Assembly: GCF_000002425.4 (NCBI RefSeq) | Contig: NC_037269.1 | Location: 15,845,309 to 15,909,308, forward strand | Length of the DNA: 64,000 bases | Reading direction: 5' to 3' | Origin: Physcomitrium patens | Lineage: Eukaryota; Streptophyta; Bryopsida; Funariales; Funariaceae | Position numbers and translations under genes: made by a program | Part shown: in pieces, positions 23,059 to 63,990 of the stretch | How positions within the stretch are numbered: the first letter of the stretch is position 1 | Layout of the letters: the number at the start of each line of letters is the position of its first letter | The notes under the pieces: generated by a model | Seen by the model: only the letters and a program-made list of their open reading frames with translations | What the model was told of the DNA's origin: nothing | The model's database searches: none

Positions 23059-23295
23059 TTGATGTAGGTAGGAGGATAAGACTAAGGCCTTGTGGCTCTT
23101 CTAATACACCTTACACACCACTTCTAATTCTTGATTAGACTCAAATTCTTGACTACCTAAATAAGTTATTATTGAGGTCAAATCCAATTACTCATTTTTT
23201 TTCATTTATACTATTTATTTCTCATCTTTCATGAATTATTCATAGCAACTTGAATTTAAAATTTTTACATAATTAAAAAGATAAAATAATTATCT

Positions 23296-23332
<37 letters not shown>

Positions 23333-28054: not shown

Positions 28055-28059
28055 AAAAC

Positions 28060-29862: not shown

Positions 29863-29879
29863 TTGAGACTCTCTATGAT

Positions 29880-30260
29880 ATTGTATCGGGTATATCTATA
29901 GAATAATCTGATTCCGACCTTTTCTAATTATTAATGTGCCTCGGTCCCAATCGTTCTTAGCTTTGGCTTGATAAAGCCAAGGTCTGCCTAATAAAATGGG
30001 TTACGATAACGTAGAACTCTGTAATTGAAATACAATATAATCGATTTTGTATGTCAATCCCACGATTACAGTGGCAATATTGCGTAAGATTCCCATTAGC
30101 TTTTCTTGACTATGATCTGTCATTCGCAAGACCAATGTCGTAGGTAGCAATTGCTTTAGATTCAAGTCCTCCATTGTATCTGCATTCATTAAATTCACAC
30201 TGGAGCCACCATCGACTTATACCCCTAGAATTAAAATGCCATAGATTGATACATCGATTG
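29880..30260 (-). pseudogene. Aspartic protease region, element D
   Basis: Minus-strand codons read VDGGSSVNLMNADTMEDL near 30170-30220 and ILLGRPWLYQAKAKNDW near 29960-29995. These match the active-site and flap ends of plant gypsy proteases of the type with D-G-G in place of D-T/S-G. Stops separate the pieces. Confidence 0.65.
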
Positions 30261-30489
30261 TTGGTGATCTCGGATCTCGGTTTAAGCTAACTTCATGAAT
30301 TTCTTTATTGCAGGAACTTCATTGTATTAACACTGAATTCAATGTAGATCGACATTTCGGTGCTACAGCCAAAAGTTGCTTCATTGTAATTGAAGGTTGA
30401 ATAACATCTAAATCCCTTAGAATGTCGTAGGGTTCCATATTGAGAGTAATTCCCAATGCTCTTTAGCATTTCATTGATTTCGATTTTAC

Positions 30490-32856
30490 TTAATTTGGGA
30501 GCAATTCCTTCTTGGCGATTGGGATTGTCGTTGGTAACTTCGCCAACTTGTCTACCACTAAAGGTTCCTTTAATGCGTAAGATCTTTTATTGGACTGTAG
30601 AGGTATTGCTACTTGGTCAGTTGGGATCGATGTTGATGGTCCTGGTAAATTGGCACTCAGGATCGAATTGGGTTTCTCAGTCTGTTGAGGTCTGAATATT
30701 AGGATACGTCCTAATACTGATATTGGTTTGTTTAGCCCCGTCGACGACACTACTTGCTCTCCTGCGATTGGTTCATCCATGTCCTGAATTGAATTCTTGT
30801 CTTTTTGTTGGCCTCTGGTAAGTACTGCATTCACCACCTCGATACGATGTATTAGTGAGTCTCGTTGAACAGGGCCTTTGTCCTCCGCTGGTTGCCTTAT
30901 TTATATTTGTTGGTCCCGGTTATTATAATTAAAGGGTGCATTGCACTCTTGATAAGTGTGACCGGACTGCTTACAATTTTGACATATTGAAGCGTAGTTA
31001 TTACTAGCCCTTGGATTAGGACATTCACTCGCATAATGTCTGATTTGTCTGCAACGATAGCAACGAAGTGATTTCTTGCCAACTCTTTCAAGGATAATGG
31101 ATGTCTCTATTGGTATATAATGTCTATTCCATATCGGATGAGTAAAGGATCCTAGTTGACCCATTGTTATTGTAGAGTCTGGCATTGGCTTCATCATGGG
31201 TAGATATTGATGGTATCTTGGTTGGTTCATCGCCAATCCGTGAATATTAGATACACCTTTTTGGTGAAATTCAAAGTTGAAGAAATTAGAATAATTCATG
31301 TTTTGTTTATTTGCTCCATTTCTATTCCAGCCAAACCTATTATTCATCTGTACTTGATTGACATCCCACAAAGTTGATTAAGTCATTATGTGGTTACTGA
31401 GTTGTTGTTGCTTCCATAAATTCCAACAGTTGGTGGTAATATGTTTGCCCCCGCAAAATGTATATTGTATAGTCATTTGAGGTGGTGAAGGACATTCTGT
31501 TATTAAATGACCTTGCCCCTTATAATTGCTGCACCAGACATTGGGATGCATATTAGTTGGTTTATGCCTTTTTTCTATATCCTTAGCCAGATTCACAGCC
31601 AATTCATCCATTTTTTTCGTCAATGTTAACAGCAATGACTCATTGGGATCCCTTGATACCAATACATTTAGCAATTCCTTTATAGGTATTGCTTTCTCAT
31701 ATGCGGAATAAGGCGCATACAGGTGTGATGATGATGGTGGTACAGCTTGCAATGGAACGACATCCACTATTTCCTATGGAATTGTACCATAATCATTCCT
31801 TCCCAGATAACTTCTCGATGCGTCATTCAAATTTGTCATTTGATAACCTCCTTGAGATGGAATCATCGTGGCTCCAACTGTTAAATTTTGGTCATAGTGA
31901 CATTCCTCTCATACTTTTGCTCACTTAAGAGATGATGCAATGGTGGCTGATTGGGCTTCCTTTACAAACATTTTCAATTTTGGTGGGTATAGTCCATTAA
32001 CCAATATGGACAACACAAATGATTCTGGCATTTGGTTATTTGGCCATTTTCGAAGTATATCTACTATACGACCATAATATGACTATATTGCTTCTGCTAG
32101 TACTATTTTGCTGTTCATTAATTTTTCTCTAAGACGTTCTTCAAAACCAATTGGTCGAAATTGGACTAAAAATGTATTTTTCAATGCCTTCCAATTGATA
32201 AATTGTCCCATAGGTTGGCGGTTATACCACTCAAACGTTGTGTCTTTCAATGTCTTTAGCAGCCATCTCAACCAAATATCTTTTGTTCTTTCACTATTGG
32301 CTATACACACCGTCAAGAATTGAGACAAATGTTGATCTCGATCCACACCTGACAAACCCCAAAAAGTAGGTAATGGCACGACGTTAGTCGTTTGATCGCC
32401 CACTGCATCCATTTGAACTACAATCGGAATTACTGGTCCTTCGGACATCATTAAAGATGTCGGTGTTGCGCTCAATTTCTTATTAAAATAAAAACTGTCT
32501 CACACAATAGTCTTTTTTGGATTTCCAGGCCTTCTCGATTGACTATTATTATCTCCAAATAATTTTACTGATTGAATATGAGGTGAAAACAATAGGTTTT
32601 GATATACTCTGAATTGGTCTTTATTAGTAAGTGATTTATGCTGATCTTCAGAACCAATCTTGTTAGGATTGGATGTATTTCCAATTGAGAAGATACCGAG
32701 TGGGGTACCTAATTCTTCTGTGCCTTCCTCGTTTTCCGTTAACGGCTTTGAGAGATTTGCTGGACTATTAGCAGCGCTCCCTTCGAGTGCTCTTGGCAAT
32801 TTCTTTAACGGTATGTACTTCTGAAATATTAGAGGTCGATCATCTTTTGGATACAA
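30490..32856 (-). pseudogene. Gag of element D (broken into several frames)
   Basis: Frames 32856-32500, 32475-32083, 31767-31378, 31371-30901 and 30837-30490 run in order on the minus strand. 32475-32083 carries the gag core (DIWLRWLLKTLKDTTFEWYN, then INWKALKNTFLVQF). 31371-30901 has two perfect CX2CX4HX4C knuckles (CYRCRQIRHYASEC and CQNCKQSGHTYQEC); a further knuckle-like CSNYKGQGHLITEC lies at about 31500-31540. Stops and frameshifts make the copy inactive. A related fragment lies at 59590-60120 on the plus strand. Confidence 0.75.
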
Positions 32857-33120
32857 TCAAATATGCCGATAGGCATGCAACCACAACTTAATCCAACTTT
32901 GTCGATGCTTCTTTTTCAACTTATAATCTTGCTCATTACGCACCAAATTTCTTGCTTGCGATCTCTCTATTCTTTCTTTTGATTGCTTTATTCTCTTTGT
33001 TGTTAAATCCTCATTCTTAATAACCATATTCTTTCTTCAAAGACTACTGAAATTGTCTTTCATTGCCAATTTTCTCACACGTCTGGTAATTAATTCCTAA
33101 CACTCAAAGGTATTATCACT

Positions 33121-33140
33121 CTCCAGCAACGACACCAAAA
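33121..33140 (-). other. Primer-binding site of element D
   Basis: Minus-strand TTTTGGTGTCGTTGCTGGAG directly follows the LTR end at 33141. It is a diverged form of TGGCGCCGTTGCCGGGG seen in element E, the tRNA-Asp-type site known from plant Ogre/Athila-like gypsy elements. Confidence 0.65.
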
Positions 33141-33906
33141 TGTGATTGCTTGTTTTACTTATTCCGGAAGAAACTTCTCAACATAAACCCATATAGGAGA
33201 ATTCGAACACGGGGAATGACTAGTTGTTTAAGCGTTTATATTAGGGTCACACAATCAATTACCTCCTGAATGTATCATGTCTATTTCTAATATCTGAACA
33301 CACAAGGAAACTATAATCTCTTCCTTCACCTTATCGATCTCTTCTTTACAGCAATTCAGTCATACCAATAACTGCTATTTCTATCAATATATTCACCCTC
33401 ATAATCTCCAACTGTAATACTGTGCCCTCATAGCTTTCAGCACACAATTATCCTCGTTCCAATCATTGGAATTCTTCACACAAAACTGCCATTCACATTA
33501 TAGTGTTTCACACAAACATAGACTTGTTCTCTCTGCTGAACTACAATCAGATTTCAGTATTCAATCTTTCTTCTTTTCAAATAATACCAATCACATTTCT
33601 ATTCCATAATTTACTTCACAATATTCAAAAACTTTCAATCCTCTTATTCAAAGAAAATAACAAACAAAAAAAAAGAGGTAGCACCAAGCTTACTCCGGCT
33701 CACAACTCTCACAATCTGGCATTTTCTTCCCCTCTCCCATCCTCCTTATACTATCCCAAAATACCAACTCCTATACTACAGATGATAATTACTTTTCTTG
33801 ACTATTCATCCATTCTACTTGCTGAACCACCTTTTCAGCAGTTATCTATCCCTGTTTATACTGTACACTAGGTATCTACATTCTGAAAATAACTAATTAT
33901 TCTATA
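33141..33906 (-). repeat. 5' LTR of element D
   Basis: About 766 bp, abutting the primer-binding site, so the element reads leftward. Nearly identical to 27096-27861. Flanked on the right by ATATT and then repeat F. Confidence 0.85.
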
Positions 33907-35449
33907 ATATTATAAAATATCTTATTTTAAAATATTATAAAAAATTATCTTAGAAAATAGACAATAATCAAAAAGATAATAAAACTAAAAGTTACTATTG
34001 CTGTCTTTTTATAAAATGGGCTTCTATTTACTTTATAAGATCATAAATAAGGCAAATCAAAATAGATTAAAGAATAAAATGATACAAGCATATATAAGAG
34101 AAAATTAAGAGTATATTTTAGTAAAATTTACCTCAAGAAGCCAAGAATTGATATTTAAAGAAGATTAATTGTCAACTTGGATCAAAATCAGACCTTGAGG
34201 CACAAAACCATGCATCTACAATGACTCCAAAGTTTTTTTATAAATTGAAGAATGAAATTGGAGAGTAAATTTGATAGGATTTTTATAAGCTTTGATCTTA
34301 TGTGATTTGGATTTATAATGACCTTTTAAGAGCTTTACAGAATTAAGTTTGTTTTAGATGACTTGGATTTTTGTGAAATAAAATAAGGTTGAAGGTTTGA
34401 ACAATTTTAGAAGTTTTGTAGCAAATTTATAAGTGCAATTTTTTAGATAAGTGGATATAGTTGTGTTTGATGTGTGTTGTGAATTCAATCTTAATTGAAC
34501 AATTAAATTGAAGGTTCTTTAAGTTTAAGTTGGTTGAGGTCTCAAAATTTGGAATTTTAGGTCTAGTAAGGATTTTTAAGATTTCTAGCAATTTGTTAGT
34601 TATATTAGAGTGAAATTTATGTATATACATAGTAGACTTATTTTTCTATATATATGTGAATTTTGAGATTAATTAAAAGATATAAAAATGAGATATTAGT
34701 ACTCAAAGATTAACATCTAGGTTGAAGAAAGAAGCTGGTCAATACTCAAGTGGATTTTAGGATTTTTCTTCTATTTGGTAAATGTAATTATGTTCAAATT
34801 TTTTGTACTTATTTCTAACTAAGAGATTGAAAGGCATGTGAGTTTTTAAGTAAGATCAATGGCTTAATTAATAAATATAGAGATTCTAATCTACTTTAGG
34901 ATTGATTTGAATTGATTAGATTTAGTTAAGATTTGATTTAAGATTTAGGATTCATCTAATATTTAATTTAGGATTTGGAATTTTTTTAGGACTTGAGATT
35001 TGTCTAGAATCTGGTTAAAAATTTAAGATTTAGTTAGGATTTGACCTCATATTTAGTTAAAATCCATTAAGATTTCAATTAAGATTGAAGTAGGATTTGG
35101 TTAAGATTTATTTAAGATTTATTTAAGGTTTCTCTAATGTTTTTTTAGGATTTTTTGTATTTTTCTTTTAAATTTTTTAAATATTTTTTTAAAGTCTACT
35201 TATTAATTTTTTAGGATTTCTTTACAATACCTTTAGAAGTTCTTTAAGATTTCTTTATGTTTCTTTTGTAATTTCTTTAAGATTTCTTTTAGATTTGATT
35301 TAAACTTGATTAATATTATTAACGTTTAATTGGAGTTTATTTAAGATTCTATTAGATTTGTTACGATCTTGTCGTTGTAATTTTTCTTCTAACCTCTAAA
35401 GTGAAGTACCCAATATATTCTCAAGGAAGACTTCATATAATACAACATT
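33907..35449 (+). repeat. Dispersed repeat F, copy 1 (probable LTR, about 1.5 kb)
   Basis: It matches 60100-61647 over its length, including CTTCTATTTACTTT near the left and a right end of ACTTCAT/ACG-TAATAC-ACA. The middle (about 34870-35360) is a degenerate array of GGATTTG/TTTAGGATT units. CA-ending and non-coding, it looks like an LTR, here inserted in relic C. The left boundary is uncertain. Confidence 0.55.
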
Positions 35450-45032: not shown

Positions 45033-46030
45033 ATTTATCATGGTATTAAAAAATATCTTATTAGCATGAAAACCTTTCAAGGCCTTCAAATCTTGCTCCA
45101 TTTCTTCATAATGGCTCCCAAAGTGATAAAACTCATTTTTACCAAAGTCTTGGAAATTACTCTAAAAATTCCTAATAAATTTCAAATAAATTCTAAATAA
45201 ATTCTAATTTTTTTTAATACTAATATCAATTTAAGGCTATAGGTTTCTACCTTGATTATTTTTATATTAATAAAATCAATTTCAATCTAGTATAAATCTT
45301 TCCTTTTATATAACTAACTAAAAAGACATGAGGTTCTTTCTCATGCTTCTTCTAATTACTAACTTATATTTATAGTTTTTCATATAAATAATATGTATAG
45401 ACGAAAGATGTGAGTCATCAAATTCATTCATTTATTATTTTAGAATAATAATATATATTTAGAATAATTTTAATCATAATATATAATAATTAGTATAGAA
45501 ATCCTTAGAAAAATAGTAAATTAGAATGTTAGTGGTAGAAATGGAGTCTTAGTAAGTCTTGGAGGCAATTATCTACATTGGTTTAGTATTTCTATTCATT
45601 GTTGAATGGTAAGAATTATTTATTAAGACCAATATTTATATTGGTCTTTTATCTATATGTATTACTTATAAAAACTATAAATGTTAGTAGTTAGAAGAAG
45701 CATGAGAAAAAACCTCATATCATTTTAGTTATTGGTATAAAAAAATGATTTATAATAGATTTAAATTAATTTTTATTATTATCAAAAATCACCAAGGTAA
45801 GAAAATATAGCCTTACATGGATATTAGGATAATAAAAATACTATAGGATTTTTTCGAATTTATTTAGAATTTATTTATAATTTTTTAGGAATTTTTAGAC
45901 CAATGTTTATGATCTTAGTAAAAATAAGTTTTACTACTTTGGAAACCATTATGAAGAAAGGGAGTAAGATTTGAAGGCCAGATCAAGTTTTTTAGCTAAT
46001 AGGGTGTTTTTTATTTTTGAATTCACCATA
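45033..46030. mobile_element. Fold-back (long inverted repeat) element, about 1 kb
   Basis: Left arm about 45033-45410 and right arm about 45640-46030 are inverted copies, roughly 80% alike by eye, along almost their full length. Matching blocks are GGCCTTCAAATCTT, TTTCTTCATAATGG, TCTAAAAATTCCTAA, and near the loop CATGAGG-TTCT-TCATGC with TTCTTCTAA-TACTAAC. The loop (45411-45639) is non-coding and ends in a small perfect hairpin, AAGACCAATA/TATTGGTCTT. No transposase. It could be a MITE/fold-back DNA transposon. It borders a truncated LTR on the right. Confidence 0.75.
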
Positions 46031-46631
46031 TGTATTAATTATCTAAAACTTCCAAAGTTCTCTTCCTCATCTCAATTCAATCCCTTCACAATTTCTACAA
46101 TCGTTCACTGCCCTGCAGCTACTCAATATCACTGACATTCATGACATCTACAGGATGCTTAATCTCTTTTTACAGTACTTCAATTCTCAATTCCTTTACT
46201 TTTACTCAATCTTCCAGTGTTACTAACACAATGCAATAATCTCTATTATCACAATCACACTTTCTTTCTCCAAATTAATTAATTCAAATTCATAATTTTC
46301 AATATCTCAATTACAGTTTCAGCAATCCTTTTCTTAAATCCAATATTAAAGAAAAACACAAAAGCAAAGAAAACAAAAGGGTAGCTCCAAGCTTTACCCT
46401 GGCTCACGACTATCACAGTCTAGCCCGGAGGTCATCTTCGTCAACCCACTTATCCTACTCAACTGACATGGCAGTTAACAGATTCCAAAAGGTACGTATT
46501 TTGGCCTGTTAACCGCTTTTCCCGCTAACTACCAATTCCTACTAATACCAATTGGTAACCATCCGACCAATTCCAGATTTTATCAACAAAGAATTGGTAC
46601 GGGATTTCGAAGACCAATTACCAATTCTACA
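46031..46631 (-). repeat. 3' LTR of element E (truncated)
   Basis: 601 bp matching 56950-57550 without indels, with about 16 substitutions. The last 116 bp of the LTR (minus-strand sense) are missing and the fold-back element stands in their place. Confidence 0.85.
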
Positions 46632-46840
46632 TAGTCCTACTCCTAGCTGTGCAGCGTCCTCGCAAACACCAATATACACCAATTTTACAACATTTGCACA
46701 TCATTTTCTTCCTCCAATTCTTGAACTTGTTGTTCGCCTTGTTCTGTTCCAATATGCTTTGCTATTGGGTTGGCTTCGTCTTCCTCTCCTTCTTCTGTCT
46801 GCTCCTCTTTAAGTTGGGCTGTCAAATCTTTGTTTAACGC

Positions 46841-48180
46841 TGTCGTATAACGTGCTTTCCTGCTCGAGAACGCGCCGGGCGTCTGGCTGTAGAAGGTAGT
46901 ATGGAGATTCGCCGATAGTCAAGCAGTCTATCAGTTTTTGACTGCTGGAATATAAACGACTGCAATAATGTACCGTAAATCTATACGGGTGCTCTTCGAC
47001 TGCTTGTCGGAGTCCTTTTTGTCCCAGCCGGTAGGTCTCTAGACGTTACAGAGAACCCCGTACAACCCAAACTGTTAACCTTCAATACTCCTTTGTACTT
47101 ACGATCTTGTATCCACTGACTGTCTTGTTAGATTAACCCAATAAATTTCATTCACTCCGCATACTCAATCCTATAGACACCCTTTTAATCCTTCAATCAC
47201 AGACGTAACTCGATTTCACAAAACAGTCAAGAGTATTCAAACCCACTTCATTTAAAAATCCCGATTCACCAGTACAACACTGACTTCAGCAGCGATAGCC
47301 TCAGTCTTCCCCAAAACTCTACGAAGAAGAAAAATCCAAATCCTATGTCTTTCCTTCCCCGACCCGAAGCATGAAGCTCCTCTCTCTAATTCCCTTGATC
47401 TCCAAAACCCTCCAATGAAAACCCGAACTGGTAACCTTGCCAAAACTTGAAAAACTAGCCCCCCCCCCCGATTCCTCGAAGAAGAAGAAAAAAACCCCCT
47501 TCCCCTAAAACTATATCCCCTCTAACCTTATCCCCTGAATTTCTTCAATCTTCCGTCTTAGATCCGGAATTGGCTCCCACCTCAAGCTTGGATCCGAAAT
47601 TGGCTCTCACCGCCAAGCTTTGTCCTCCGTTTTTACCTTTAAGAAATCCATTTACCGCAAACAACGTTCCCTGAAACGGCACAGAGAATAAGACGTAAAA
47701 CAGAATCGAACCCCGTAATCGGGACCACATTGAGTCGCCTGACCAATTCAGGTCCTATATTGGAAAAGATGCCCGTAGTAACCTAGATGTTCCCGTAATT
47801 GGGTCAAATTGGTCCTCGCGTCAGATTGGCTAAGACCCGTAGTAAGACCTGGATTCCCCGTAATTAGACTGCATTGGGTTGCCCCACCAATACAGGTCTC
47901 ATATTGGGTAAGAGGACCCGGATTGGATTATCGAAATTGGATCCAATTGGCTCCTCGAACCCGTCGTGTGAATTGGTCCTTCTCTTCCTACTGACTCCCG
48001 TTATTCGAATCGAACGGGGCATTCCAGTATGCCCCGGCTGACTGTAACGGAGTCACTGAACCTGACCACTCAGTATTTGTACTGGAGTTGGTCGATGCTC
48101 CCAATATTCGAGATAACTGAATATTAATAAAATCCCCCTTTCTTTTTATTTTCACTGTATACTCGTGTTACAACACGACA
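46841..48180 (-). repeat. 3' LTR of element A
   Basis: 1340 bp. The minus-strand tract AGAGGGGGTGGA just right of 48180 is the polypurine tract. Contains a C9 run and repeated AATTGG motifs. Confidence 0.9.
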
Positions 48181-48242
48181 TCCACCCCCTCTGAACCTGT
48201 GCATCCTCCGGTATGCACCAATTTATCCAATTGCTGTTTGAT

Positions 48243-48953
48243 TCAGAATATATCCCCTACGTCTTTGTCCAGTTCGTCTTCGTCACCTTCATTATCCATA
48301 TCACTTTCATCTTCTTGCTGCGGAATCTCTGTACCTTCATTAAGGTCTTCCATATTCATCTCTGCGTGTCTTCGTTTAAATATTTTTACTCTCTTCCCTG
48401 CAATTGGTATTTTCAATTTTGTACCATCTAACTCCCGTAATGAGTAAGTCGCATTATCATGAACAGTTGTTACAACATATGGTCCAAACCAACGTTTTGA
48501 AAATTTCCGCAAAGAACTATGTTGATTATCCAGACTATTGTCATAAACAAGTACCCAGTCACCTTCCTCGATTGCTTTTGGTCTCAATCGATGTTGCTTA
48601 TCGAATCGCGCCTTGTTTTGTAACCTTGCTCTTTTTAACCTTTCCAATGCTATCTGGACATCTGCCGTTCTATATCTCGTCTCTACTGTGACTTCTGGTG
48701 CTTGAAAAGATTCAAGCATGGTATAAACCTCTCTCGAATGAATCTCAACAATCTTATCATTATTTCCTAACCCAATAGATGCAATCAATTCCAATGAATC
48801 TTCCAGCCCATTTTCTTCATAAACACCCAAAATCCTCTCATCATCTTGCAATGTATCTATCTTGCGTAACTGTCCTTCAATATTATATAATCTTTTTCTT
48901 TCTTTTCTTTTAAAATCTTCAACTTTCTTATACATAATATTTCCATTCTCCAA
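48243..48953 (-). CDS. Element A ORF2: integrase C-terminal domain with acidic tail
   Basis: 236 codons from ATG at 48953 to a stop 62 bp before the 3' LTR. Residues about 95-185 form the integrase C-terminal region: ALERLKRARLQNKARFDKQH, then EGDWVLVYDNS and KFSKRWFGPYVV, the GPY/F motif, followed by RELDGTKLKIPIAGKRVKIF. The first 95 residues are charged and unrecognised. The last 40 are very acidic (EDESDMDNEGDEDELDKD). The catalytic core and zinc domain are missing, so it cannot integrate DNA by itself. It may be expressed as a fragment or be a leftover of a deletion. Confidence 0.8.
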   Translation of the reverse strand: MENGNIMYKKVEDFKRKERKRLYNIEGQLRKIDTLQDDERILGVYEENGLEDSLELIASIGLGNNDKIVEIHSREVYTMLESFQAPEVTVETRYRTADVQIALERLKRARLQNKARFDKQHRLRPKAIEEGDWVLVYDNSLDNQHSSLRKFSKRWFGPYVVTTVHDNATYSLRELDGTKLKIPIAGKRVKIFKRRHAEMNMEDLNEGTEIPQQEDESDMDNEGDEDELDKDVGDIF

Positions 48954-49030
48954 TATACCAATAAAACTCGCATCAAAGGCACCTTCATCTCGCGAGAGTA
49001 CCTCCTCTTTTGTACCTCCATAATCTCGCT

Positions 49031-51424
49031 TTACAGTGGTACCTCCCCAAAATCCTTAAATCCTTCAACAATCTTTGGCAATGGTTTCTCCCTCAACCTA
49101 TCTCGATTCCGTTCATGGTTAGGAGGTACTTTTAGAAATTGTACAGCTTTCCTCCCATCTTCGCTCCGTACCCTTGCATAAGCAGAACCATCGTCAAGTA
49201 CCTTTGTTTCCATCCGTGTTGCCGTGATATAAGGTTGTCCTAAAATCAACGGATAAGACGTTGTATCTTGAATGAAGAAATGTTGCTCCGTAGCAACATC
49301 CCCAATCCGAATTTTGACATCTGGACAAGCTCCATATAATTCGCCTCGTGTGTTATTAGCTGCTCGTATTGCCCATCCATGTTCCATATCAATTGGCCAT
49401 TTTTGCTTCTTATAAAGATCTTTAGACATGAGATTTATTTCAGAACCATGGTCCACCAAGGCAACTATTGGTTCTTCTATATCTCCTACCTTCACCAATA
49501 CCTCAGTAGTTGCCCTTGCCCAATGCTTTCGAGTATAATGGCTCAAAGTTTCCATTTCCTTGTCATTAGAATCTTCGAAACGTACTCGCTGATTATACCC
49601 ATTCTTTTCATTTATTGGTTGCTTGTAACCAATATCAACCTCTTCTTCATCTCTACATATTCTTGCGTCAATAGCATGACTCATTCCAGTTTCGCTCATT
49701 AATTGCCTCTTTCGCTTAATGCTGTCAATGATAACATCATGAAACTCCTTCTTTGCAATTCCCAAGACTTCTTTCAATGTGAATTCCACCTTAGCATTTA
49801 ATATACGTTCTTCCAACACCCCTTTCAAATTTGTTGCTGCTTCAATGTCAGAAAGTAGCTTATAAGCAATTGATTTGCCCTTATCTTTTGTCTCCGTTGT
49901 TTTTTCTCCCAATGATGCTGAGGTATCCTTTACAGGCAATTCTTGTGAAGCTGCCTCCCGAGCCTTGTCTCCTCGAGTTTGCCTCTTAAAAGAATTTCCT
50001 TCTCTAGTATCATCAAAATTTCCTCGTCTTTTTCCTTCCATCAAAGCTTCATGTTGGCTCTTAGCAATATATGCATGAACTGAAAGAGACTCAATGGGAT
50101 CCTCCCAACCTGTTCTTCCTCGTATTGTAGCTGCAGTTCTCAATAACGCTTCTCGAGGTAATTTCCCTTCTTGCATTGTAGAAACGGCAGAAGCCCAAAA
50201 CTCACTAGTTTTCGTACTTCCACCAATTTCATCATCTATTCTAGCACCATAACTTGCACTTTCTCGTGCTACTGTTTCATGCTCTTTTAAGTAATCTTGA
50301 ACCAATGCTCTCATTCCTCCCTTGCCAAAATTGGTTTGAAGAAGATCCTCCCTATCTTTCAATGCTATCTTCCCATCTTTCCAGCAAATAATTCCCTGCC
50401 GTATCATATTATTAAATTCATTGCAATCTTTTCTAGTGTGTGAAGCATCATCACACCAAATGCATCTTTGTACATATCCTTGTTTTGAAACATTCTTCGA
50501 ATTGTTTATAGAAGTATTCTCTTCAAGTCTTGCCAATTTGATTTGAAGATCTCGCATTCCTCGTATAATTTCTTCCATACCCATATCTGTTTTCTTTGAC
50601 AAGGATGTCGAAGGTTGAACTGTAGGCATTGTCGGTGGTGTTGTACGTACTGGAGCTTTGGATGCTTGTACTTGTTTTGGAATATTACTCCTATCCTTCC
50701 TCCTTTCTTTTTTTGTAAGCAACCCCACCGCATCTTCAACGTTCTTCCACTTCGTTGTCAATCCTTCATTTTCTTCTTTGTCTTCAAGAAGGGGTTCTAA
50801 TTTCTCTTGCAATTCTCCATCAGCAGCTTGAAGAAATAAATCAACTTTGTTCGGCTCCAATGTCAATTTTTCTACCTTCGATAATTGAGAGTACTGCCTC
50901 TCAAATTCCCTTAGTAGCTCTGTTGCTTGCAAATTCTTATTGGGCCGTTCAATCCATCCCAGAAACAGCTTCTTAGTAACGCGATCAGCATCTTCCAAGA
51001 AATATTCGTCTTTCAATGCATGTGAAAAATCCTCCCATGAATTCCCACAATGATCCGTAATCGATGTAATGTGGTCCCTTATCTCCGGTATCGTGGCAAG
51101 TCCAAATAGTGCAACCATTTTCTTCTCAGAAACCCGATTTAATTCCATTTCACGAACATAACATCTTAAATACCTTGAAATATTCCTCCCATCAAATTGA
51201 TCAATTTTATTGACCACTGCTTGCAATGCTTTGGTTGCCAAAGCTTCCTTTCGATCATTGCTTTGCTGTTGCTGCATTGACAATGAGAAGGCTTGAAACA
51301 AACTAGCAATAGATGGATCCATGTGCATACCTTGTCCTTTAGAAGACTCCCCACCAGAAATTTCTCCCAAAAATCCTTCAAAATTTTTATTTTCGTTTTC
51401 CATAAAAAATAAAGATAAAATCAA
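49031..51424 (-). CDS. Element A ORF1: intact gag-protease polyprotein
   Basis: 797 codons starting about 50 nt after the 5' LTR; a second ATG is at codon 8. It should form the virus-like particle and process it. A low-complexity Gln stretch lies near residue 52. The gag core spans about 75-240 (LRCYVREMELNRVSEKKMVA, LEPNKVDLFLQAADGELQEK). A perfect CX2CX4HX4C knuckle, CIWCDDASHTRKDC, lies near 320-333. The protease near 655-740 has VDHGSEINLMSK and PLILGQPYI; its active site reads D-H-G rather than D-T/S-G. The frame is free of stops, unlike every other retroelement ORF in the window. A decayed relative lies at 952-1962. Confidence 0.85.
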   Translation of the reverse strand: MILSLFFMENENKNFEGFLGEISGGESSKGQGMHMDPSIASLFQAFSLSMQQQQSNDRKEALATKALQAVVNKIDQFDGRNISRYLRCYVREMELNRVSEKKMVALFGLATIPEIRDHITSITDHCGNSWEDFSHALKDEYFLEDADRVTKKLFLGWIERPNKNLQATELLREFERQYSQLSKVEKLTLEPNKVDLFLQAADGELQEKLEPLLEDKEENEGLTTKWKNVEDAVGLLTKKERRKDRSNIPKQVQASKAPVRTTPPTMPTVQPSTSLSKKTDMGMEEIIRGMRDLQIKLARLEENTSINNSKNVSKQGYVQRCIWCDDASHTRKDCNEFNNMIRQGIICWKDGKIALKDREDLLQTNFGKGGMRALVQDYLKEHETVARESASYGARIDDEIGGSTKTSEFWASAVSTMQEGKLPREALLRTAATIRGRTGWEDPIESLSVHAYIAKSQHEALMEGKRRGNFDDTREGNSFKRQTRGDKAREAASQELPVKDTSASLGEKTTETKDKGKSIAYKLLSDIEAATNLKGVLEERILNAKVEFTLKEVLGIAKKEFHDVIIDSIKRKRQLMSETGMSHAIDARICRDEEEVDIGYKQPINEKNGYNQRVRFEDSNDKEMETLSHYTRKHWARATTEVLVKVGDIEEPIVALVDHGSEINLMSKDLYKKQKWPIDMEHGWAIRAANNTRGELYGACPDVKIRIGDVATEQHFFIQDTTSYPLILGQPYITATRMETKVLDDGSAYARVRSEDGRKAVQFLKVPPNHERNRDRLREKPLPKIVEGFKDFGEVPL

Positions 51425-51454
51425 CCAAAATCCAATACCTTCTACCTCAAGCTT

Positions 51455-51475
51455 TCACGTCGGGTTCACCACTTA
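51455..51475 (-). other. Primer-binding site of element A
   Basis: Minus-strand TGGTGAACCCGACG lies three bases after the LTR end. It begins with TGG, complementary to a tRNA CCA end. The matching tRNA was not identified. It differs from the site used by D and E. Confidence 0.6.
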
Positions 51476-52815
51476 TGTCGTATTACGTGCTTTCCTGCTC
51501 GAGAACGCGCCGGGCGTCTGGCTGTAGAAGGTAGTATGGAGATTCGCCGATAGTCAAGCAGTCTATCAGTTTTTGACTGCTGGAATATAAACGACTGCAA
51601 CAATGTACCGTAAATCTATACGGGTGCTCTTCGACTGCTTGTCGGAGTCCTTTTTGCCCCAGCCGGTAGGTCTCTAGACGTTACAGAGAACCCCATACAA
51701 CCCAAACTGTTAACCTTCAATACTCCTTTGTACTTACGATCTTGTATCCACTGACTGTCTTGTTAGATTAACCCAATAAATTTCATTCACTCCGCATACT
51801 CAATCCTATAGACACCCTTTTAATCCTTCAATCACAGACGTAACTCGATTTCACAAAACAGTCAAGAGTATTCAAACCCACTTCATTTAAAAATCCCGAT
51901 TCACCAGTACAACACTGACTTCAGCAGCGATAGCCTCAGTCTTCCCCAAAACTCTACGAAGAAGAAAAATCCAAATCCTATGTCTTTCCTTCCCCGACCC
52001 GAAGCATGAAGCTCCTCTCTCTAATTCACTTGATCTCCAAAACCCTCCAATGAAAACCCGAACTGGTAACCTTGCCAAAACTTGAAAAACTAGCCCCCCC
52101 CCCCGATTCCTCGAAGAAGAAGAAAAAAACCCCCTTCCCCTAAAACTATATCCCCTCTAACCTTATTCCCTGAATTTCTTCAATCTTCCGTCTTAGATCC
52201 GGAATTGACTCCCACCTCAAGCTTGGATCCGAAATTGGCTCTCGCCGCCAAACTTTGTCCTCCGTTTTTACCTTTAAGAAATCCATTTACCGCAAACAAC
52301 GTTCCCTGAAACGGCACAGAGAATAAGACGTAAAACAGAATCGAACCCCATAATCGGGACCACATTGAGTCGCCTGACCAATTCAGGTCCTATATTGGAA
52401 AAGATGCCCGTAGTAACCTAGATGTTCCCGTAATTGGGTCAAATTGGTCCTCGCGTCAGATTGGCTAAGACCCGTAGTAAGACCTGGATTCCCCGTAATT
52501 AGACTGCATTGGGTTGCCCCACCAATACAGGTCTCATATTGGGTAAGAGGACCCGGATTGGATTATCGAAATTGGATCCAATTGGCTCCTCGAACCCGTC
52601 GTGTGAATTGGTCCTTCTCTTCCTACTGACTCCCGTTATTCGAATCGAACGGGGCATTCCAGTATGCCCCGGCTGACTGTAACGGAGTCACTGAACCTGA
52701 CCACTCAGTATTTGTACTGGAGTTGGTCGATGCTCCCAATATTCGAGATAACTGAATATTAATAAAATCCCCCTTTCTTTTTATTTTCACTGTATACTCG
52801 TGTTACAACACGACA
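51476..52815 (-). repeat. 5' LTR of element A
   Basis: 1340 bp, about 99.2% identical to the 3' LTR by my count. Confidence 0.9.
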
Positions 52816-53410
52816 ACGCTCCCAATGTGCGCACCTGAGATTCCAATAATGCGATTTGGTTGTCTCGCTCCTTCAGCTGCTCTTTGAGTACATGCACATG
52901 TATCTCCGGTTCTCCTGACGATGTACTGGCGGGATTGGCTGCTTCCTTCTACTTGTTCAATGTAGACACCTCGGCTTCCAATTCCTGAATCCGGAGTGTT
53001 AAGTTCTCGTTCTCCACCTTTGAACTCTCCGACTGCCTACGTAAATCATCCTCTGATTTAGTCTTCTCGGCCGCCAATTCTTTCGCCTGATTCATTTCCT
53101 CCTGACACTGGTTCCGCAACTCAATACACTCCTGCTTGTTAAGCTCCGCCAGAGTCTTCATCATCTTGTGCTGCCTGGTCTATTCCCCTTCTCTCTCCTT
53201 GACCTGGTGCTCCAATTTAGCATACTTGAGGGCGTTCGTTACTGAAACACGTTGTAAATCCTCGATCTTCTACTGTTGCTTCTCCAAAATCTTGTTCTTC
53301 TCCTCCAATTTCTGTCGAAGACTCAGCTCGTTGTCCATCCTTACAACTGCCAAATGCAGCTGGTTAATCTGTGCCGAGATCAACTCCTTAAGCTCTCCTG
53401 CCTGCTGATT
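52816..53410 (-). pseudogene. Coiled-coil C-terminal part of element E ORF2, split by element A
   Basis: Minus-strand frames read ELKELISAQINQLHLAVVRM, LRQKLEEKNKILEKQQ, then ECIELRNQCQEEMNQAKELA and LTLRIQELEAEVSTLNK, a long heptad-type coil with two stops. The frame runs into A at 52816 and resumes at 46840-46640 with NKDLTAQLKEEQTEEGEEDE. The SQVR-LG--N-DL-AQL pattern matches the 3' ORF of element D. Confidence 0.6.
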
Positions 53411-54342
53411 ACCTCCCTATGAATCCACCCGTTGAAAATACTGCACTGATACTGGTGTTGCTTCTGTCCTATTGGTGCTGGGGGGGGGACCAATTCCGTT
53501 GATGATGAACTCGCATTGGTCCGATCGCGATTCCTAGCTTGACTGCATTCTGCTATCGGCGCTCCTTCTACTAGTGTTGATGGTATTGGTACTGGCTCCA
53601 GTCTTGTCTCCGTCGCTACAGGTCCCAATCTCGCCACCAATACTAGTTGCTGCAGCTGATATTTAATGGCTCTACACACGTAATTGGAACACAACAACGT
53701 GGTAACCTTCCCTGTTCTCCTCTTCGTGTCCAATTCCGCATGGATCCTTGTTGCAACATATGCTGTCCAATTGAAGACCATCCCTTCCAACGTCACAATT
53801 GCTAAAAATAACAATCTTCTCGATATATATATTGTATGCCGATTCAACCCTAATCTCTTTTGCACATACCGCATCTATTCTACTAGCTCTGGCGAAAGCG
53901 CATCCGCTGTTTTCCACCCTTGACTCTTCTCAAATGCTTCATTTCCCGACTTGAAGTAGTTGCTTGGAACAAAATCAAACTCCAGATCTCCCGATATTGG
54001 CAACTCACCCATGGGAAGATATAATACCTTATTCAGCACCACCTCATTTATACCAATAATTTTGCCATGCGCCACACTGGACCCATCCTCCGGATCATAA
54101 TTCTTCAAATATTTTGTTACCAATGTTATGTCAATTGGTGGCAGCTTTTGCGAAAACTTCAAAAACCCATACATCTGCGCCGTGCAAAACTCTCTCTGTC
54201 TCTTCTGCCACCAAAAGATGTCCATAGCTATCGGCTCCATATTGGTCACTATAACACACTCTATTGGTGGCATTTCGCCTTTCGACTTGATTGAACGCTG
54301 TCTCTCATCTCTCCTAGCTGTCCTCTTCTTACGAATCACCAT
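53380..54342 (-). pseudogene. Element E ORF2, N-terminal part; plant-transposon-protein-like
   Basis: 54342-53875 (155 codons) and 53874-53380 (164 codons) are the same frame split by one stop. The N-terminus is basic (MVIRKKRTARRDERQR). The middle has HGKIIGINEVVLNKVLYLPM, resembling the conserved segment of accessory proteins of plant gypsy elements (Transposase_32 style; recognised by eye only). A Ser/Pro-rich linker follows, then a frameshift near 53410 into the coiled coil. Function unknown. Confidence 0.4.
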
Positions 54343-54639
54343 CTCTTCTACTCACAACAATACTCTAAACTCACACTCGGGAATACGACTCACAAAAATT
54401 ACAATGTAAACAATGCAAAAATAGAGTCCCACTCCTAACTTCTACCATGTTTCTCCTCCTGAATTGATGTACTCTGACGTGCTCTTGACGCCTAGCCTAT
54501 TAGGATCTTCGTAACGACCTTTGTATTGCACTTCCTGTCTTAATCGCATTATTACCCATGTTACAATTTCCATCATAACACTTGCGCTGTCACTTCAGCA
54601 CGTAATGACCACTCGTTCCTCCTCCCCACCAATATAGAA

Positions 54640-55260
54640 AAAACCCGTCCCGGGTTTATGTATTATACAGGCGTAACCGATTTCCTAAATTGCCGCATCA
54701 TTGACTTCTTCCGTTGATATTGGTGCGCCACGCTTCAAATTGGTAACCTCCTCCTCCACTTCTTCATCTTCTATTTCAGTATTCAAGTCTTGATACTGGT
54801 GCATTGGTCTTCCCAATAATTGGAATTGGTTCTGGAATTGGCTTGATCCCGTTTGTAAAATTGGTTCTCTTACGGGTTAAGACTGGCCACCCAAATTGGT
54901 TGAAATTGGCTCCTTAAAATTGGTGAACAACCCAATATACTGGTCGAATTGGTTAATAAAATTGAACCTGCTATTGGTTCTGGTATCGGACTTTCTTTTT
55001 TAAACAGTATTGGAGTACCTTTGCCATGTATTGGTTCTTGCTGATTTTCAATAATTGGGTCTGTTCCAATATTTGAATTGGTCCTTCGTCTTTCAATATT
55101 TAAATTAGGTCTTTTCCAATCTGAAATTGGGTATTTTTCAATTTAATTGGGTCATTTTCATCTTTGAATTGGGTCATTTCTAATCTAAATTGGATCTTTA
55201 CCAATCTGAATTGGCTTGTTGATTACCATTAGACTAGATTTCTCATTTATAAACTGATTT
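54640..55260. repeat. ATTGG-rich spacer of element E
   Basis: About 21 ATTGG pentamers occur on the plus strand in roughly 520 bp (54715-55220), mostly as AATTGG. Spacing is irregular. No open frame. The same motif recurs in the LTRs of E and A. On the other strand it is CCAAT. Confidence 0.75.
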
Positions 55261-55298
55261 ATATCTTTATTTTGTTCAGCGCATGAATTTCTTTCCTT

Positions 55299-56732
55299 TC
55301 AAATATGCCAGGATCCCATATTTTTTTCATTACTTGACACTTGTAGAAACAAATTCTTCAAAATGCCATTTGATGCAATAATATTGCTTGAAAATAATAT
55401 ATGATAATACTTTGAATTCATTGCATACATACTTTGCTTAATGTTGGAAAAACATCCTTCATAAGATTTTGTAAATCTTAAACCACCAATATTGAGTATA
55501 GTCGTACAGTTATCAATTAAACATGTCATAGACGTCTTAAGATCCATAATTATTTTATTAATTTTGAGATTAAAGATTTGAGAATATAAAATTTCCTTCA
55601 CACATTCCAAATTTGAATGAAAATTCTCATAAAGAAACGCTGATATTTTAGTTTTCACAATTGATTTTTGAGTTGCAAAAGTTTTTCTTTTCCACATGTT
55701 GAAATCCATTGTCCTTTTTAAAATAATTTTTTTCAACAGCTTTGGTTCTTGCTTATCTACTTTAAGCAAATTTGACATGGTTTCATTCTTCAATTTAAAA
55801 TTTGGTAAATAATGATGCCTCCAAGTACTAAAGATTGTAAATTTGTTGAATTTGACTTCAAAATATTTTATTAAGCAACCTTCATTGGCTTGATTGCAAA
55901 ACAATGGCTTAACTTTTAATTTTGCCAAAGCTTCACCTCTTTGTCTAGCTAGAAATAAAATTTCTTTATTCTTTAAAATCTTTGATTGCAAATTTTCTTC
56001 AACTCCTTTTGACAAAACTTTGTTTGCAATGGCCTCAACTTCCTTAATTTTGAATCTTGATTTTTCTTCATTTAGTTGTGAAACTAAATTACTATTATTA
56101 TCAATTAATATAGTAATCTCAATTTCTAATTTTATATTCCTATCTTTATATTCCAAATTGTCATAATTCATATCCTCATGCAATTGTTTGAATGTTGCTT
56201 CTTTCCTTTCCATACATTCAAGGTTTCTTTCTTCTAATTGTTGAAATTTTTCATGCTCATGTTGCAATTTACTTTTCAAATTATAAATAATCTTTTTTTG
56301 ATTTGAAGTTTCTTCCAATAAATCATTTTTTTCTTCCAATGAATTGATCAAGTCATTTGTTTTTGTGCATAATTCATTTTTTAAAGATTCAGTACACAAT
56401 TCATAATTCTTTTTAATTTTCTTTAACAATTCTTCTCTTTGATATTTCATATCGAACTCTTGTTGTTTCATATCCCTAAATATCCTTTCTTTTTGCAATT
56501 GATTTTCCCGAATTTGAAAAGTTTCATGTTCTTCTTGCAATTCCAATTTTAAATCATTGATCATTTCATCTCTTATTAAAATTTGATCAATTAAATCTTT
56601 TCTTTCACCTTGGAATTTTTCAAGTTCATAAAAAAATTGCAAGCCATTTTCATGGAGATAACTTTCTCTTGATGACCTTGGCCAAAAATTTTCAAAGTCT
56701 AAATCAAACATTCTTATAATTCTTTTATTCAA
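55299..56732 (-). CDS. Element E ORF1: 477-codon coiled-coil protein
   Basis: Starts about 85 nt after the primer-binding site, the position of gag, and is uninterrupted. Residues about 35-290 are rich in Glu, Lys, Leu, Gln and Asn with heptad spacing (LIDQILIRDEMINDLKLELQ, REELLKKIKKNYELC, NDLINSLEEKNDLLEETSNQ), a long parallel-coil candidate. The C-terminal 190 residues are Lys/Phe/Asn/Ile-rich with scattered Cys and no known motif; they include KRKTFATQKSIVKTKISAFL. No zinc knuckle, signal peptide or catalytic signature. Codons are strongly AT-biased. It may replace gag as a structural protein, or be captured sequence. I do not recognise the family. Confidence 0.6.
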   Translation of the reverse strand: MNKRIIRMFDLDFENFWPRSSRESYLHENGLQFFYELEKFQGERKDLIDQILIRDEMINDLKLELQEEHETFQIRENQLQKERIFRDMKQQEFDMKYQREELLKKIKKNYELCTESLKNELCTKTNDLINSLEEKNDLLEETSNQKKIIYNLKSKLQHEHEKFQQLEERNLECMERKEATFKQLHEDMNYDNLEYKDRNIKLEIEITILIDNNSNLVSQLNEEKSRFKIKEVEAIANKVLSKGVEENLQSKILKNKEILFLARQRGEALAKLKVKPLFCNQANEGCLIKYFEVKFNKFTIFSTWRHHYLPNFKLKNETMSNLLKVDKQEPKLLKKIILKRTMDFNMWKRKTFATQKSIVKTKISAFLYENFHSNLECVKEILYSQIFNLKINKIIMDLKTSMTCLIDNCTTILNIGGLRFTKSYEGCFSNIKQSMYAMNSKYYHILFSSNIIASNGILKNLFLQVSSNEKNMGSWHI

Positions 56733-56815
56733 CTTCCAATATTTTTATTATTGGAATTATTTCCCTTTTCTATTTTACATTCAATTTTTAATACTTCGTA
56801 CTGTTGTTCTTTCCC

Positions 56816-56833
56816 CGGCAACGGCGCCAAAAA
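56816..56833 (-). other. Primer-binding site of element E
   Basis: Minus-strand TGGCGCCGTTGCCGGGG after the LTR end. This is the tRNA-Asp-type site of Ogre/Athila-like plant gypsy elements and is shared, in diverged form, by element D. Confidence 0.8.
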
Positions 56834-57550
56834 TGTAATCGTCGTTTGACTCGGACTCAAAACACCAAGATATTTGATCAGTATAGGTGGGTTTGATCTT
56901 GGGGAAAGACTCGTTGTATGAATTGGATATGTTATGTTACAATTGATTATGTATTAATTATCTAAAACTTCCAAAGTTCTCTTCCTCATCTCAATTCAAT
57001 CCCTTCACAATCTCTACAATCGTTCACTGCCCTGCAGCTACTCAATATCACTGACATTCCTGACATCTACAGGATGCTTAATCTCTTTCCACAGTACTTC
57101 AATTCTCAATTCCTTTACTTTTACTCAATCTTCCAGTACAACTAACACAATGCAATAATCTCTATTATCACAATCACACTTTCTTTCTCCAAATTAATTA
57201 ATTCGAATTCATAATTTTCAATATCTCAATCACAGTTTCAGCAATCCTTTTCTTAAATCCAATATTAAAGAAAAACACAAAAGCAAAGAAAACAAAAGGG
57301 TAGCTCCAAGCTTTATCCTGGCTCACGACTATCACAGTCTGGCCCGGAGGTCATCTTCCTCAATCCACTTATCCTACTCAACTGACATGGCAGTTAACAG
57401 ATTCCAAAAGGTACGTATTTTGGCCTGTTAACCGCTTTTCCCGCTAACTACCAATTCCTACTAATACCAATTGGTAACCATCCGACCAATTCCAGATTTT
57501 ACCAACAAAGAATTGGTACGGGGTTTCGAAGACCAATTACCAATTCTACA
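56834..57550 (-). repeat. 5' LTR of element E
   Basis: 717 bp, TGTAGAATTGG to CGACGATTACA on the minus strand. Contains CCAATT/AATTGG clusters near its right end. Complete, unlike the 3' LTR. Confidence 0.85.
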
Positions 57551-62039: not shown

Positions 62040-63990
62040 TAATATTCAAAAGGCTTTTAATCCTAATCTCTGAATCAAATCATGATGTCTACCCTTTAGT
62101 AATGTCTTTGTAAGTTCATCAGCAAGCATGTCATTTGTAACACAATACTTCATACCTATTATTCCATCTTCAATCTTCTCTCGTATGAAATGATGTTGAA
62201 CATCAATGTGCTTGGTCCTTGAATGATGCTTTGAATTCTTTACAAATGCAAGACATCCTTGATTGTCATACATAATGGTAGTTACTTCTAATTATATTAG
62301 ACTAATATCTTCTAAAAGTTGCCTTATCCAACAAGCCTCCATTTGCACAATGACTTGCTGCCATGTATTCTGCCTCCATTGTTGATCTTGCAATAGTAGG
62401 TTGTTCTTGCAATTCTATGAAATTGCTCCAATTCCAATGAAGAATACATATCCTATTGTGAATCGTCTATCATTTACATCTCTTGTCCAATCCGCATTAC
62501 AATAACCTTGCAAGTCAATGTTCTTACTACCAAAGCATAATTTGAGGTCTTTTATACGTTTTAAGTACCTCAAAATCTTCTTTATTGTTTTCCAATGCAT
62601 TGGTCCAGCCTTAAACATGTGTTGGCTTACAATACTCCCTGCATATGCAAGATCCACTCTTGTAGCCACCATTACATACATGAGTGAGCCTACTACTGCT
62701 TTGTATGGAATACTTTGCATCTCACCTTCAACTTGTGTAAACTCCTCATCTGTGAGCTTCATCAACTTCAAATTTGTCTCTAAGGGTGTTCCAATGGGCT
62801 TGCATTCTTCCATCTTGAATTGTTTCAACACTTCTTTAATGTACTTTGTTTGGCTCATTGTAATGGTCTTGTTACTACAATCTCTTAAAAATTCCACTTC
62901 CAAGCAATAGTGTAATTCTCCCAAATCACTCATCTCATATTTCTTCTCTAATTTAGCATTCATCCAATCCATCTTTTCCATATTGTTAGCCAAAATCATC
63001 AAATCATCAACATAGAGGATTACAATCAACAAGAACTCTCTAGATTGCATCACATACAATGAATGATCAGCTTCACTCCCTAAAAATCCTTCAATGACAA
63101 AGAAGGTGTGAATTCGTTGGTACCATGCCTTTGGTGATTGTTTCAACCCATACAAGAATTTCTTCAATTTGCAAACAAGATGTTCTTTGCCTTGTTGTAT
63201 AAATCCTTGAGGTTGGTCCATATAGATGTCTTCTTACAATTTTTTATTCAAAAAATGCCGTCTTTACATCTATTTGGTGTATTTTCAAATCCATTGCTAC
63301 CCCAATTGCTTCAATGGTCCTTATGATGGTGAATTTGGCAACGGGTGCATAAGTCTCATTGAAATCAATTCCAGCAACTTGTGAGTATCTTTTGGCAACT
63401 AATCTTGCCTTGTGCCTCACCACCACACCCATTGAATCTCTTTTAGTCCTGAACACCCATTTACAACCAACACTAGATTGATTTGGTGGAAGAGGTGCCA
63501 ATTTCCATGTACCATTGTCCATAAGAGATTGGTACTCTTCTTCTATAGCCTTCTCCCACTTGATTGCATCTTCACACTTCATAGCATCACACAAAGACAA
63601 TGGATCAGCAAGAAGAGCAACATTTACATTTTCTTCACTTCGTTGAGGGAAGATGTGATCCTTCCACCATTCGCCATGTTGCCTTCTTTCTTTCAAGAGA
63701 TATCTCCTTTCATTGATTGAAGAACATTCACCTTGTTCTTTTCATACTCTTAAACCTTGTCGTTTCTTACTCAATGGTTGGAAGTTTTCATCATTGTCAT
63801 CATCCCAATCTTCAACATCTTCATTTCTTTCATTCCTGGTCCTATCAATTATAAGAGCCTTCATCTTTTCAACCTTCTTTCGATTTTTATCTTCATCATC
63901 TTCATTGTCTTCATCTTCTTGTTTCTCTGCTGAATTCAAAGATGTGTCTACAAACACACCATTACTCCTACTTGGACACATCTTCAAGTA
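62040..63990 (-). pseudogene. Ty1/copia pol: RT and RNase H, 3' half, broken
   Basis: Read leftward: an acidic linker (63987-63742); RT start 63696-63244 (WKLAPLPPNQSSVGCKWVF, KARLVAKRYSQ, FNETYAPVAK, QIDVKTAFFE); RT core 63221-62415 (MDQPQGFI, KKFLYGLKQSPKAWYQRI, LYVDDLMILANN with an intact catalytic YVDD near 63003-63014); RNase H in 62415-62046, ending NDMLADELTK and RLGLKAF. A stop sits between 63244 and 63221, and RNase H is frame-broken near 62400. The element continues right of the window. It is better preserved than the copia relic at 6120. Confidence 0.9.

What the first reader, a model, noticed from the sequence alone, without database searches (positions are those of the whole stretch)
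46031..57550. LTR element E carries two non-gag-pol reading frames
E has proper LTRs, a tRNA-Asp-type primer site and a polypurine tract, so it was made by reverse transcription. Its gag position is filled by an uninterrupted 477-codon coiled-coil ORF (55299-56732), followed by a second ORF with a plant-transposon-protein-like segment and another coiled coil. No RT, integrase, protease or zinc knuckle is visible. It may be a non-autonomous family with its own structural protein, or it may have captured host sequence.
Basis: partly seen in the sequence, partly recalled or inferred. Interest (0 to 1): 0.7.

Follow-up and report, generated by a model that had tools for sequence, protein, structure and literature searches.

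The report
Retrotransposon family with orphan coiled-coil gene
In a moss-like plant genome, a family of about 22 recently active retrotransposon copies has lost its own replication genes and instead carries a long coiled-coil protein gene of unknown origin that has moved between different terminal repeats.

Summary
Element E is real: a 717-bp 5' LTR, an exact tRNA-Asp-type primer site, a 481-codon open frame in the gag position and a broken second gene, interrupted by an unrelated nested 6-kb Gypsy element. E itself is dead (its 3' LTR lacks about 114 bp). Genome-wide, ORF1 occurs in 22 copies. In 20 of 22 it holds 87 more in-frame codons; 6 of 22 have an intact 578-codon frame. In 13 copies with LTR pairs these are 97-100% identical, and 11 of 13 have perfect 5-bp target duplications, so the family jumped recently. 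Four relatives with about 90% similar LTRs hold gag-pol DNA plus ORF2 (a fifth is seen in part); none holds ORF1. E is thus non-autonomous: ORF1 sits where gag was and protease-RT-integrase is gone. ORF1 stays near-identical in copies whose LTRs or ORF2 are far less alike, so the cassette moved by recombination. No other gene in the genome resembles ORF1. E and one other copy lack exactly a 261-bp segment with GT...AG ends, suggesting splicing before reverse transcription. Selection on ORF1 cannot be judged: gag and pol fail the same test. New variant of a known kind; ORF1's source and function stay open.

The parts
56834..57550 (-). 5' LTR of E, 717 bp
   Evidence: TGTA...TACA ends; matches 3' LTR copy at 97.5% over 603 bp; full LTR pairs in relatives
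56812..56829 (-). primer-binding site, tRNA-Asp type
   Evidence: TGGCGCCGTTGCCGGGGA on the minus strand; tRNA identity recalled
56769..56833 (-). leader (with the primer site) shared with gag-pol relative C10
   Evidence: similarity to C10 continues from the LTR to 56769 and then stops
55299..56732 (-). ORF1, coiled-coil protein in the gag position (this copy lacks 261 bp and has a 1-bp insertion near the end)
   Evidence: 22 copies in the genome
54857..55093 (-). remnant of the gag-protease spacer of the gag-pol relative
   Evidence: two weak, collinear matches to L023:3290-3492
54352..54685 (-). remnant from the end of integrase and spacer before ORF2
   Evidence: GNRLRLY peptide and DNA match to L024 from position 2144
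52816..54351 (-). ORF2, first part (PF20167-like region then coiled coil), broken frames
   Evidence: 76% DNA identity to C10 relative; PF20167 in relatives
46841..52815 (-). nested Gypsy element inside ORF2 (not part of E); LTRs 46841-48180 and 51476-52815
   Evidence: TSD ACGC; gag-protease frame with weak DUF4100 match
46632..46840 (-). end of ORF2 and 3' internal region with short purine-rich tract next to the LTR
   Evidence: tail piece 91-96% identical in 9 loci; CTAGGAGTGGGACTA before the 3' LTR in most copies
46029..46631 (-). 3' LTR of E, truncated by about 114 bp at its outer end
   Evidence: compare full LTRs

Best explanation
E is a dead copy of a young non-autonomous LTR retrotransposon family derived from an Athila-like Ty3/Gypsy element. 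In the founder, gag was replaced by an AT-rich orphan gene (ORF1, 578 codons, long coiled coil) and protease-RT-integrase was deleted; LTRs, primer site, a scrap of the gag-protease spacer and the 3' gene ORF2 were kept. Shown: structure, copy number, mosaicism, recent jumps, existence of gag-pol relatives, no other ORF1 homologue found in this genome. Inferred: the RNA is packaged, copied and integrated in trans by gag-pol relatives that share LTR and leader; template switching between co-packaged RNAs moved the ORF1 cassette into other LTR and ORF2 backgrounds; and in two copies (E and C23a) a 261-nt in-frame, intron-like segment of ORF1 was spliced out before reverse transcription. ORF1 was most likely acquired once, recently, from a source not seen in this assembly; whether its protein helps the element is open.
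For: LTR and ORF1 searches of the genome. LTR-pair identity 97.1-100% in 13 copies; by eye 11 of 13 have perfect 5-bp duplications, 1 has one mismatch, 1 not seen; 2 of the 15 loci examined gave no LTR pair. gag-pol relatives: gag (PF03732), zinc knuckles, RNase H and integrase in C10, RVT_1, RNase H and integrase in C9, DNA collinear in C4, C9 and C18, ORF2 after integrase. Collinearity of E with C10 outside ORF1. Mosaicism: ORF1 windows 96.4-99.8% identical to C15 in 9 of 9 compared copies, while LTR windows fall to 52-73% in 4 of them and several ORF2-side windows to 63-77% in 2. GC 26% in ORF1 against 39-47% in gag, pol and ORF2. Splice-like ends: only 176 of 52,551 possible microhomology deletions in ORF1 would show GT...AG; E and C23a share no exclusive variant.
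Against: No source gene for ORF1 was found, so capture is inferred from composition and from its absence in the gag-pol relatives. Trans-mobilisation is not demonstrated. The gag-pol relatives seen have LTRs about 90% identical to E's, not the same, and each of the five shows at least one stop in the frames examined. The fifth, C24, was seen only from the end of RNase H onward. A closer helper was not found, and the search for one with the C18-type LTR did not complete. The 261-bp loss could be one deletion spread by recombination.
Confidence: 0.72

Rival explanations
1. ORF1 encodes the family's own working protein (RNA-binding, particle or movement function) and is kept by selection on the element.
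For: ORF1 is open over 578 codons in 6 of 22 copies, among them 4 of the 5 closely related copies C15, C18, C26, C23b, C23c. It was kept through several changes of LTR and ORF2, while ORF2 carries a stop at reference codon 390 in 13 of the 15 family rows that can be scored there, E included (a 16th row, C3a, has that part deleted).
Against: Variants in ORF1 fall as under neutrality (singletons N/S 1.3 times, shared 0.83 times expectation); rates per base class are similar to the LTRs; stop changes are not depleted (12 and 5 seen where about 5 and 3 are expected). But gag and pol of relatives look equally neutral (dN/dS 1.04-1.32), so the test is blind.
Confidence: 0.35
2. ORF1 is passenger sequence: a gene or fragment captured by transduction, as in maize Bs1, with no role in movement.
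For: Different composition from the element, abrupt borders at 56769 and near 55093, no selection signal.
Against: No donor gene in the genome by DNA or protein search; composition unlike a typical host coding sequence (GC3 24%; the host comparison is recalled).
Confidence: 0.45
3. ORF1 is an old 5' accessory ORF of an autonomous lineage whose gag-pol copies are lost or unassembled; E arose simply by deleting gag-pol.
For: 5' accessory ORFs with helical segments exist in plant Gypsy elements (PMC11728184 passages). A gag-protease spacer scrap directly follows ORF1.
Against: The gag-pol relatives lack ORF1, and all ORF1 matches in the genome are at the 22 copies of the family. ORF1 is far more alike between copies than LTR and ORF2.
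Confidence: 0.18
4. The 261-bp difference is a plain deletion, not splicing.
For: 2-nt microhomology at the ends; the segment is coding, in frame, and has the same GC as its flanks.
Against: Exact GT...AG register (0.33% by chance), AG|GTATAT donor and TGCAG acceptor, lost in two copies that share no exclusive variant.
Confidence: 0.3

Closest known systems
Athila-type Ty3/Gypsy retrotransposons with a 3' accessory ORF (PF20167-like)
   Same: [quoted passage not shown] PF20167 in a sunflower Athila 3' aORF, PMC11728184 passages)
   Different: the E family has no gag or pol; ORF1 fills the gag position; lineage of the RT not tested by a tree
Maize Bs1 and other gene-transducing LTR retrotransposons
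   Same: LTR element carrying transduced non-retroviral coding sequence (Bs1 named in PMC7264820, parts 1-2 of 3 read; that it is non-autonomous is recalled)
   Different: Bs1's donor genes are known; ORF1 has no donor here, and occurs in 22 copies and several LTR types
Plant LTR retrotransposons with 5' accessory ORFs (e.g. Tekay group)
   Same: extra ORF with helices upstream of where gag lies (PMC11728184 passages)
   Different: in those the ORF accompanies gag-pol; here it replaces gag
Recently active non-autonomous Retand elements
   Same: elements lacking some standard domains were recently active (PMC11963269 passages)
   Different: other lineage, reported only from Eudicotyledons and Liliopsida, with antisense ORFs

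Membership tests
Non-autonomous LTR retrotransposon | two LTRs, PBS, target-site duplication | tested here: met
   family: 11 of 13 copies with LTR pairs have a perfect 5-bp TSD; E itself has a truncated 3' LTR, so no TSD
Non-autonomous LTR retrotransposon | no RT, integrase, protease or gag of its own | tested here: met
   Pfam on ORF1 and ORF2 pieces; pol absent relative to C10
Non-autonomous LTR retrotransposon | mobilised in trans by a related gag-pol element | not testable with these tools
   related gag-pol elements exist; no mobilisation assay
Athila lineage | tRNA-Asp PBS | tested here: met
   sequence; tRNA identity recalled
Athila lineage | 3' sense ORF with PF20167 domain | tested here: inconclusive
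   best E-value 2.1e-5 but 24.9 bits against cut-off 45
Athila lineage | RT/integrase phylogeny | not tested
   no reference set at hand
Phygy clade (moss Gypsy) | NCGN insertion preference, short element without extra ORF | tested here: not met
   the E family has varied 5-bp TSDs and extra ORFs; the nested element does show ACGC; definition from PMC6317226 passages
Gene-transducing element (Bs1-like) | donor gene identifiable in host | tested here: not met
   whole-genome DNA and protein searches find only the family

The most novel reading that the evidence does not exclude
ORF1 is a gag substitute: a foreign coiled-coil protein, possibly self-assembling and RNA-binding like LINE-1 ORF1p, that lets a gag-less LTR element package its RNA and recruit pol from relatives, with a spliced short isoform that shortens a helical hairpin; its presence in several LTR backgrounds would be selection for the gene itself.
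Probability: 0.1. Interest if true: 0.85.

Novelty: new variant of a known kind. Interest (0 to 1): 0.55.

Why it matters
Plant LTR elements with extra ORFs are known, but typically the ORF sits beside gag-pol. Here an orphan gene stands in gag's place in a recently mobile family and has crossed between LTR types, with hints of an in-frame intron. That gives a young natural case, possibly in a genetically tractable moss (species inferred), for asking how retrotransposons acquire genes, how non-autonomous families recruit helpers, and whether accessory ORFs do anything.

Tried and rejected
Pfam on ORF1 of E and on the full-length ORF1 of copy C18 gave nothing above noise; PDB sequences gave one meaningless hit at E 0.26. 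IMG/VR and GTDB scans found no relative of ORF1 (in GTDB 7 stretches matched a pattern and none was confirmed); both reach only close relatives, so a distant viral or bacterial source is not excluded. AlphaFold models of ORF1 (mean pLDDT 43) and ORF2 (44.7) are too poor overall for a fold search, so none was run; only the long helices are worth mention. The selection test was run and found blind by its own control. The low overall divergence of ORF1 looked like conservation, but per base class it is similar to that of the LTRs: the gene is AT-rich and most changes are C to T or G to A. I first read the 261-bp segment as a non-coding intron; it is open, in frame and coding, so 'exitron-like' is the better word, and deletion remains possible. 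I first placed the outer LTR end 4 bp off (57554) from a BLAST end; one search corrects it to 57550. Not answered despite repeated tries: whether the C18-type LTR has a gag-pol partner, how widespread ORF2 and PF20167 are, how many copies of the C10 gag region exist, and a relaxed search with the C-terminal half of ORF1.
Full report
Its size and the nested element's ACGC target duplication, which fits the NCGN preference reported for the Physcomitrella-specific Phygy clade (PMC6317226, passages), suggest Physcomitrium patens; this is inferred, not tested.

E as seen. On the minus strand E has a 717-bp 5' LTR (56834-57550), 4 bp, then an exact TGGCGCCGTTGCCGGGGA primer site (56812-56829), a leader, ORF1 (55299-56732; frame 481 codons), an ATTGG-rich stretch, and a broken ORF2 (from 54351). 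A nested Gypsy element fills 46841-52815 (LTRs 99.3% identical; TSD ACGC; gag-protease frame with a weak DUF4100 match). The outer 3' LTR (46029-46631) lacks about 114 bp. The length of ORF1's frame is far beyond chance (481 codons; longest simulated 176 and 151 in two sets of 1000). E is thus a real but dead copy.

The family. DNA search with ORF1 found 45 matches from 25 scored candidates, which I group into 22 copies. Protein search with the full ORF1 of copy C18 found 35 matches from 37 scored candidates, all within those copies. I fetched DNA around all 22, some only in part because of nested insertions (and the window). Of 15 loci examined for LTR pairs 13 gave one, 97.1-100% identical; by eye 11 of 13 show perfect 5-bp target duplications, C21b has one mismatch, in C3b none was seen; C3a and C13b gave no pair. 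Copy C23b has identical LTRs over 729 bp. The family was therefore mobile very recently.

ORF1. In 20 of 22 copies ORF1 holds 261 bp more than in E. With it the frame is 578 codons and is intact in 6 of 22 copies: C18, C23c, C15, C26, C21b, C3b. E also has a 1-bp insertion near the end that changes its C-terminus. The segment is absent from E and C23a exactly between AAAG|GTATAT and TGCAG|AAA. Of 52,551 possible 60-599-nt deletions in ORF1 with 2 or more nt of microhomology, 176 have a GT...AG register. E and C23a share no variant that other copies lack (3 shared sites, all shared with others too) and do not group in a poorly resolved tree. Splicing followed by reverse transcription is the simplest reading; a deletion spread by recombination is not excluded. 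The AlphaFold model is poor overall (pLDDT 43), but residues 91-200 score about 70-90 and form two long helices whose turn (141-145) lies within this segment.

Relatives with gag and pol. Five elements (C10, C4, C9, C18 at 12.07 Mb, C24) have LTR matches of 90-91% to E. DNA of C4, C9 and C18 is collinear with C10 from LTR through gag, pol and ORF2 at about 94-97%; C24 matches only from the end of RNase H onward, with a nested element at the border. C10 shows Retrotrans_gag, zinc knuckles, RNase H and integrase (protease below cut-off); C9 shows RT, RNase H and integrase; C4 a gag match just below cut-off. After integrase comes ORF2: 567 codons open in C9, with weak similarity to PF20167 (2.1e-5; 24.9 bits against a cut-off of 45) and a coiled-coil tail. 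Each of the five shows at least one stop in the frames examined. PF20167 has been reported in a 3' extra ORF of a sunflower Athila element (PMC11728184, passages). E matches C10 through the LTR and leader to 56769, then weakly at 55093-54857 (gag-protease spacer), then from 54685 (end of integrase) through ORF2. So ORF1 took gag's place and protease-RT-integrase was lost.

Mosaicism. Against copy C15, ORF1 windows are 96.4-99.8% identical in 9 of 9 copies compared. LTR windows fall to 52-65% in C18, C21b and C3b (in C18 and C21b after a first 275 bp at 90-92%) and to 73% in the first part of C21a's LTR; several ORF2-side windows fall to 63-77% in C23a and C21a. C18 and C15 are 97.5-100% identical in all internal windows but differ in LTRs. 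The ORF1 cassette has therefore been moved between LTR and ORF2 backgrounds, most simply by template switching (inferred).

Selection. Among the 22 copies, N/S is 1.3 times the neutral value for singletons and 0.83 times for shared variants, with no lack of stops. Pairwise dN/dS of ORF1 runs from 0.56 to 3.0 in 10 comparisons. But gag and pol of the gag-pol relatives give 1.04-1.32 in 5 comparisons, so this test cannot see constraint in young copies. ORF2 gives 1.0 and 0.71 between gag-pol relatives and 0.43-0.59 in 4 comparisons between more distant copies, a sign of past constraint. Per base class, ORF1 diverges about as the LTRs do: CG 22% against 15 and 10%, CHG 11% against 16 and 13%, CHH 5.8% against 7.0 and 7.7%, transversions 0.40% against 0.56 and 0.67%. 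In ORF2 a stop at reference codon 390 is shared by 13 of 16 family rows, E's first part included; C23a and C21a lack it and C3a has that part deleted. In ORF1 I saw no in-frame stop in more than 2 of the 19 copies translated (by eye; some rows are frameshifted).

Source of ORF1. Its GC is 26% (GC3 24%), against 39-40% in gag and pol and 47% in ORF2. No Pfam family, no solved structure, no relative in IMG/VR or GTDB by scans that reach close relatives only, and none found elsewhere in this genome at E 0.001. A foreign AT-rich donor, a lost host gene, or an old accessory ORF of an unseen lineage all remain possible.

Literature. In the held open-access library, searches on non-autonomous and gene-capturing LTR elements in plants and mosses listed 8, 1, 12 of 141, 4, 1 and 10 of 97 papers; in those titles and abstract starts I saw no such moss family. 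Most subscription papers are not held, so this is weak. [quoted passage not shown] The moss TE survey (PMC7466625, passages) names RLG1-3 and others; I could not match them to this family.

Verdict. A real, recently mobile, non-autonomous family: new variant of a known kind, with an unexplained gene.

Noticed in passing
46841-52815: Nested Gypsy element, LTRs 1340 bp and 99.3% identical, TSD ACGC, gag-protease frame of 797 aa (weak DUF4100) followed by an integrase-tail frame; two relatives (L021, L028) hold about 2.7 kb more internal sequence there, so this copy has an internal pol deletion.
   Followed up: partly
L019, L020, L021, L022, L034, L040: The same nested element type lies in or next to several other copies of the E family (C5, C20, C13, C6), as if it often inserts there.
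   Followed up: no
27096-34104: Another LTR element (LTR pair 98.4% identical) with internal stretches 67-76% similar to the gag-pol relative C10, and zinc-knuckle-like motifs at 30901-31377.
   Followed up: partly
45047-46013: Terminal-inverted-repeat element (arms about 370 bp, 78-79% alike) ending about 15 bp from E's truncated 3' LTR; its insertion may be linked to the truncation.
   Followed up: no
20001-25000: Five kilobases of 13-21% GC with short AT-rich tandem repeats.
   Followed up: no
62415-63741: Two adjoining Copia-like reverse transcriptase frames on the minus strand, broken once (family recalled from the sequence).
   Followed up: no
56241-56353 and 56514-56625: Internal repeat within ORF1 (67% identity), matching two similar coiled-coil modules.
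   Followed up: no
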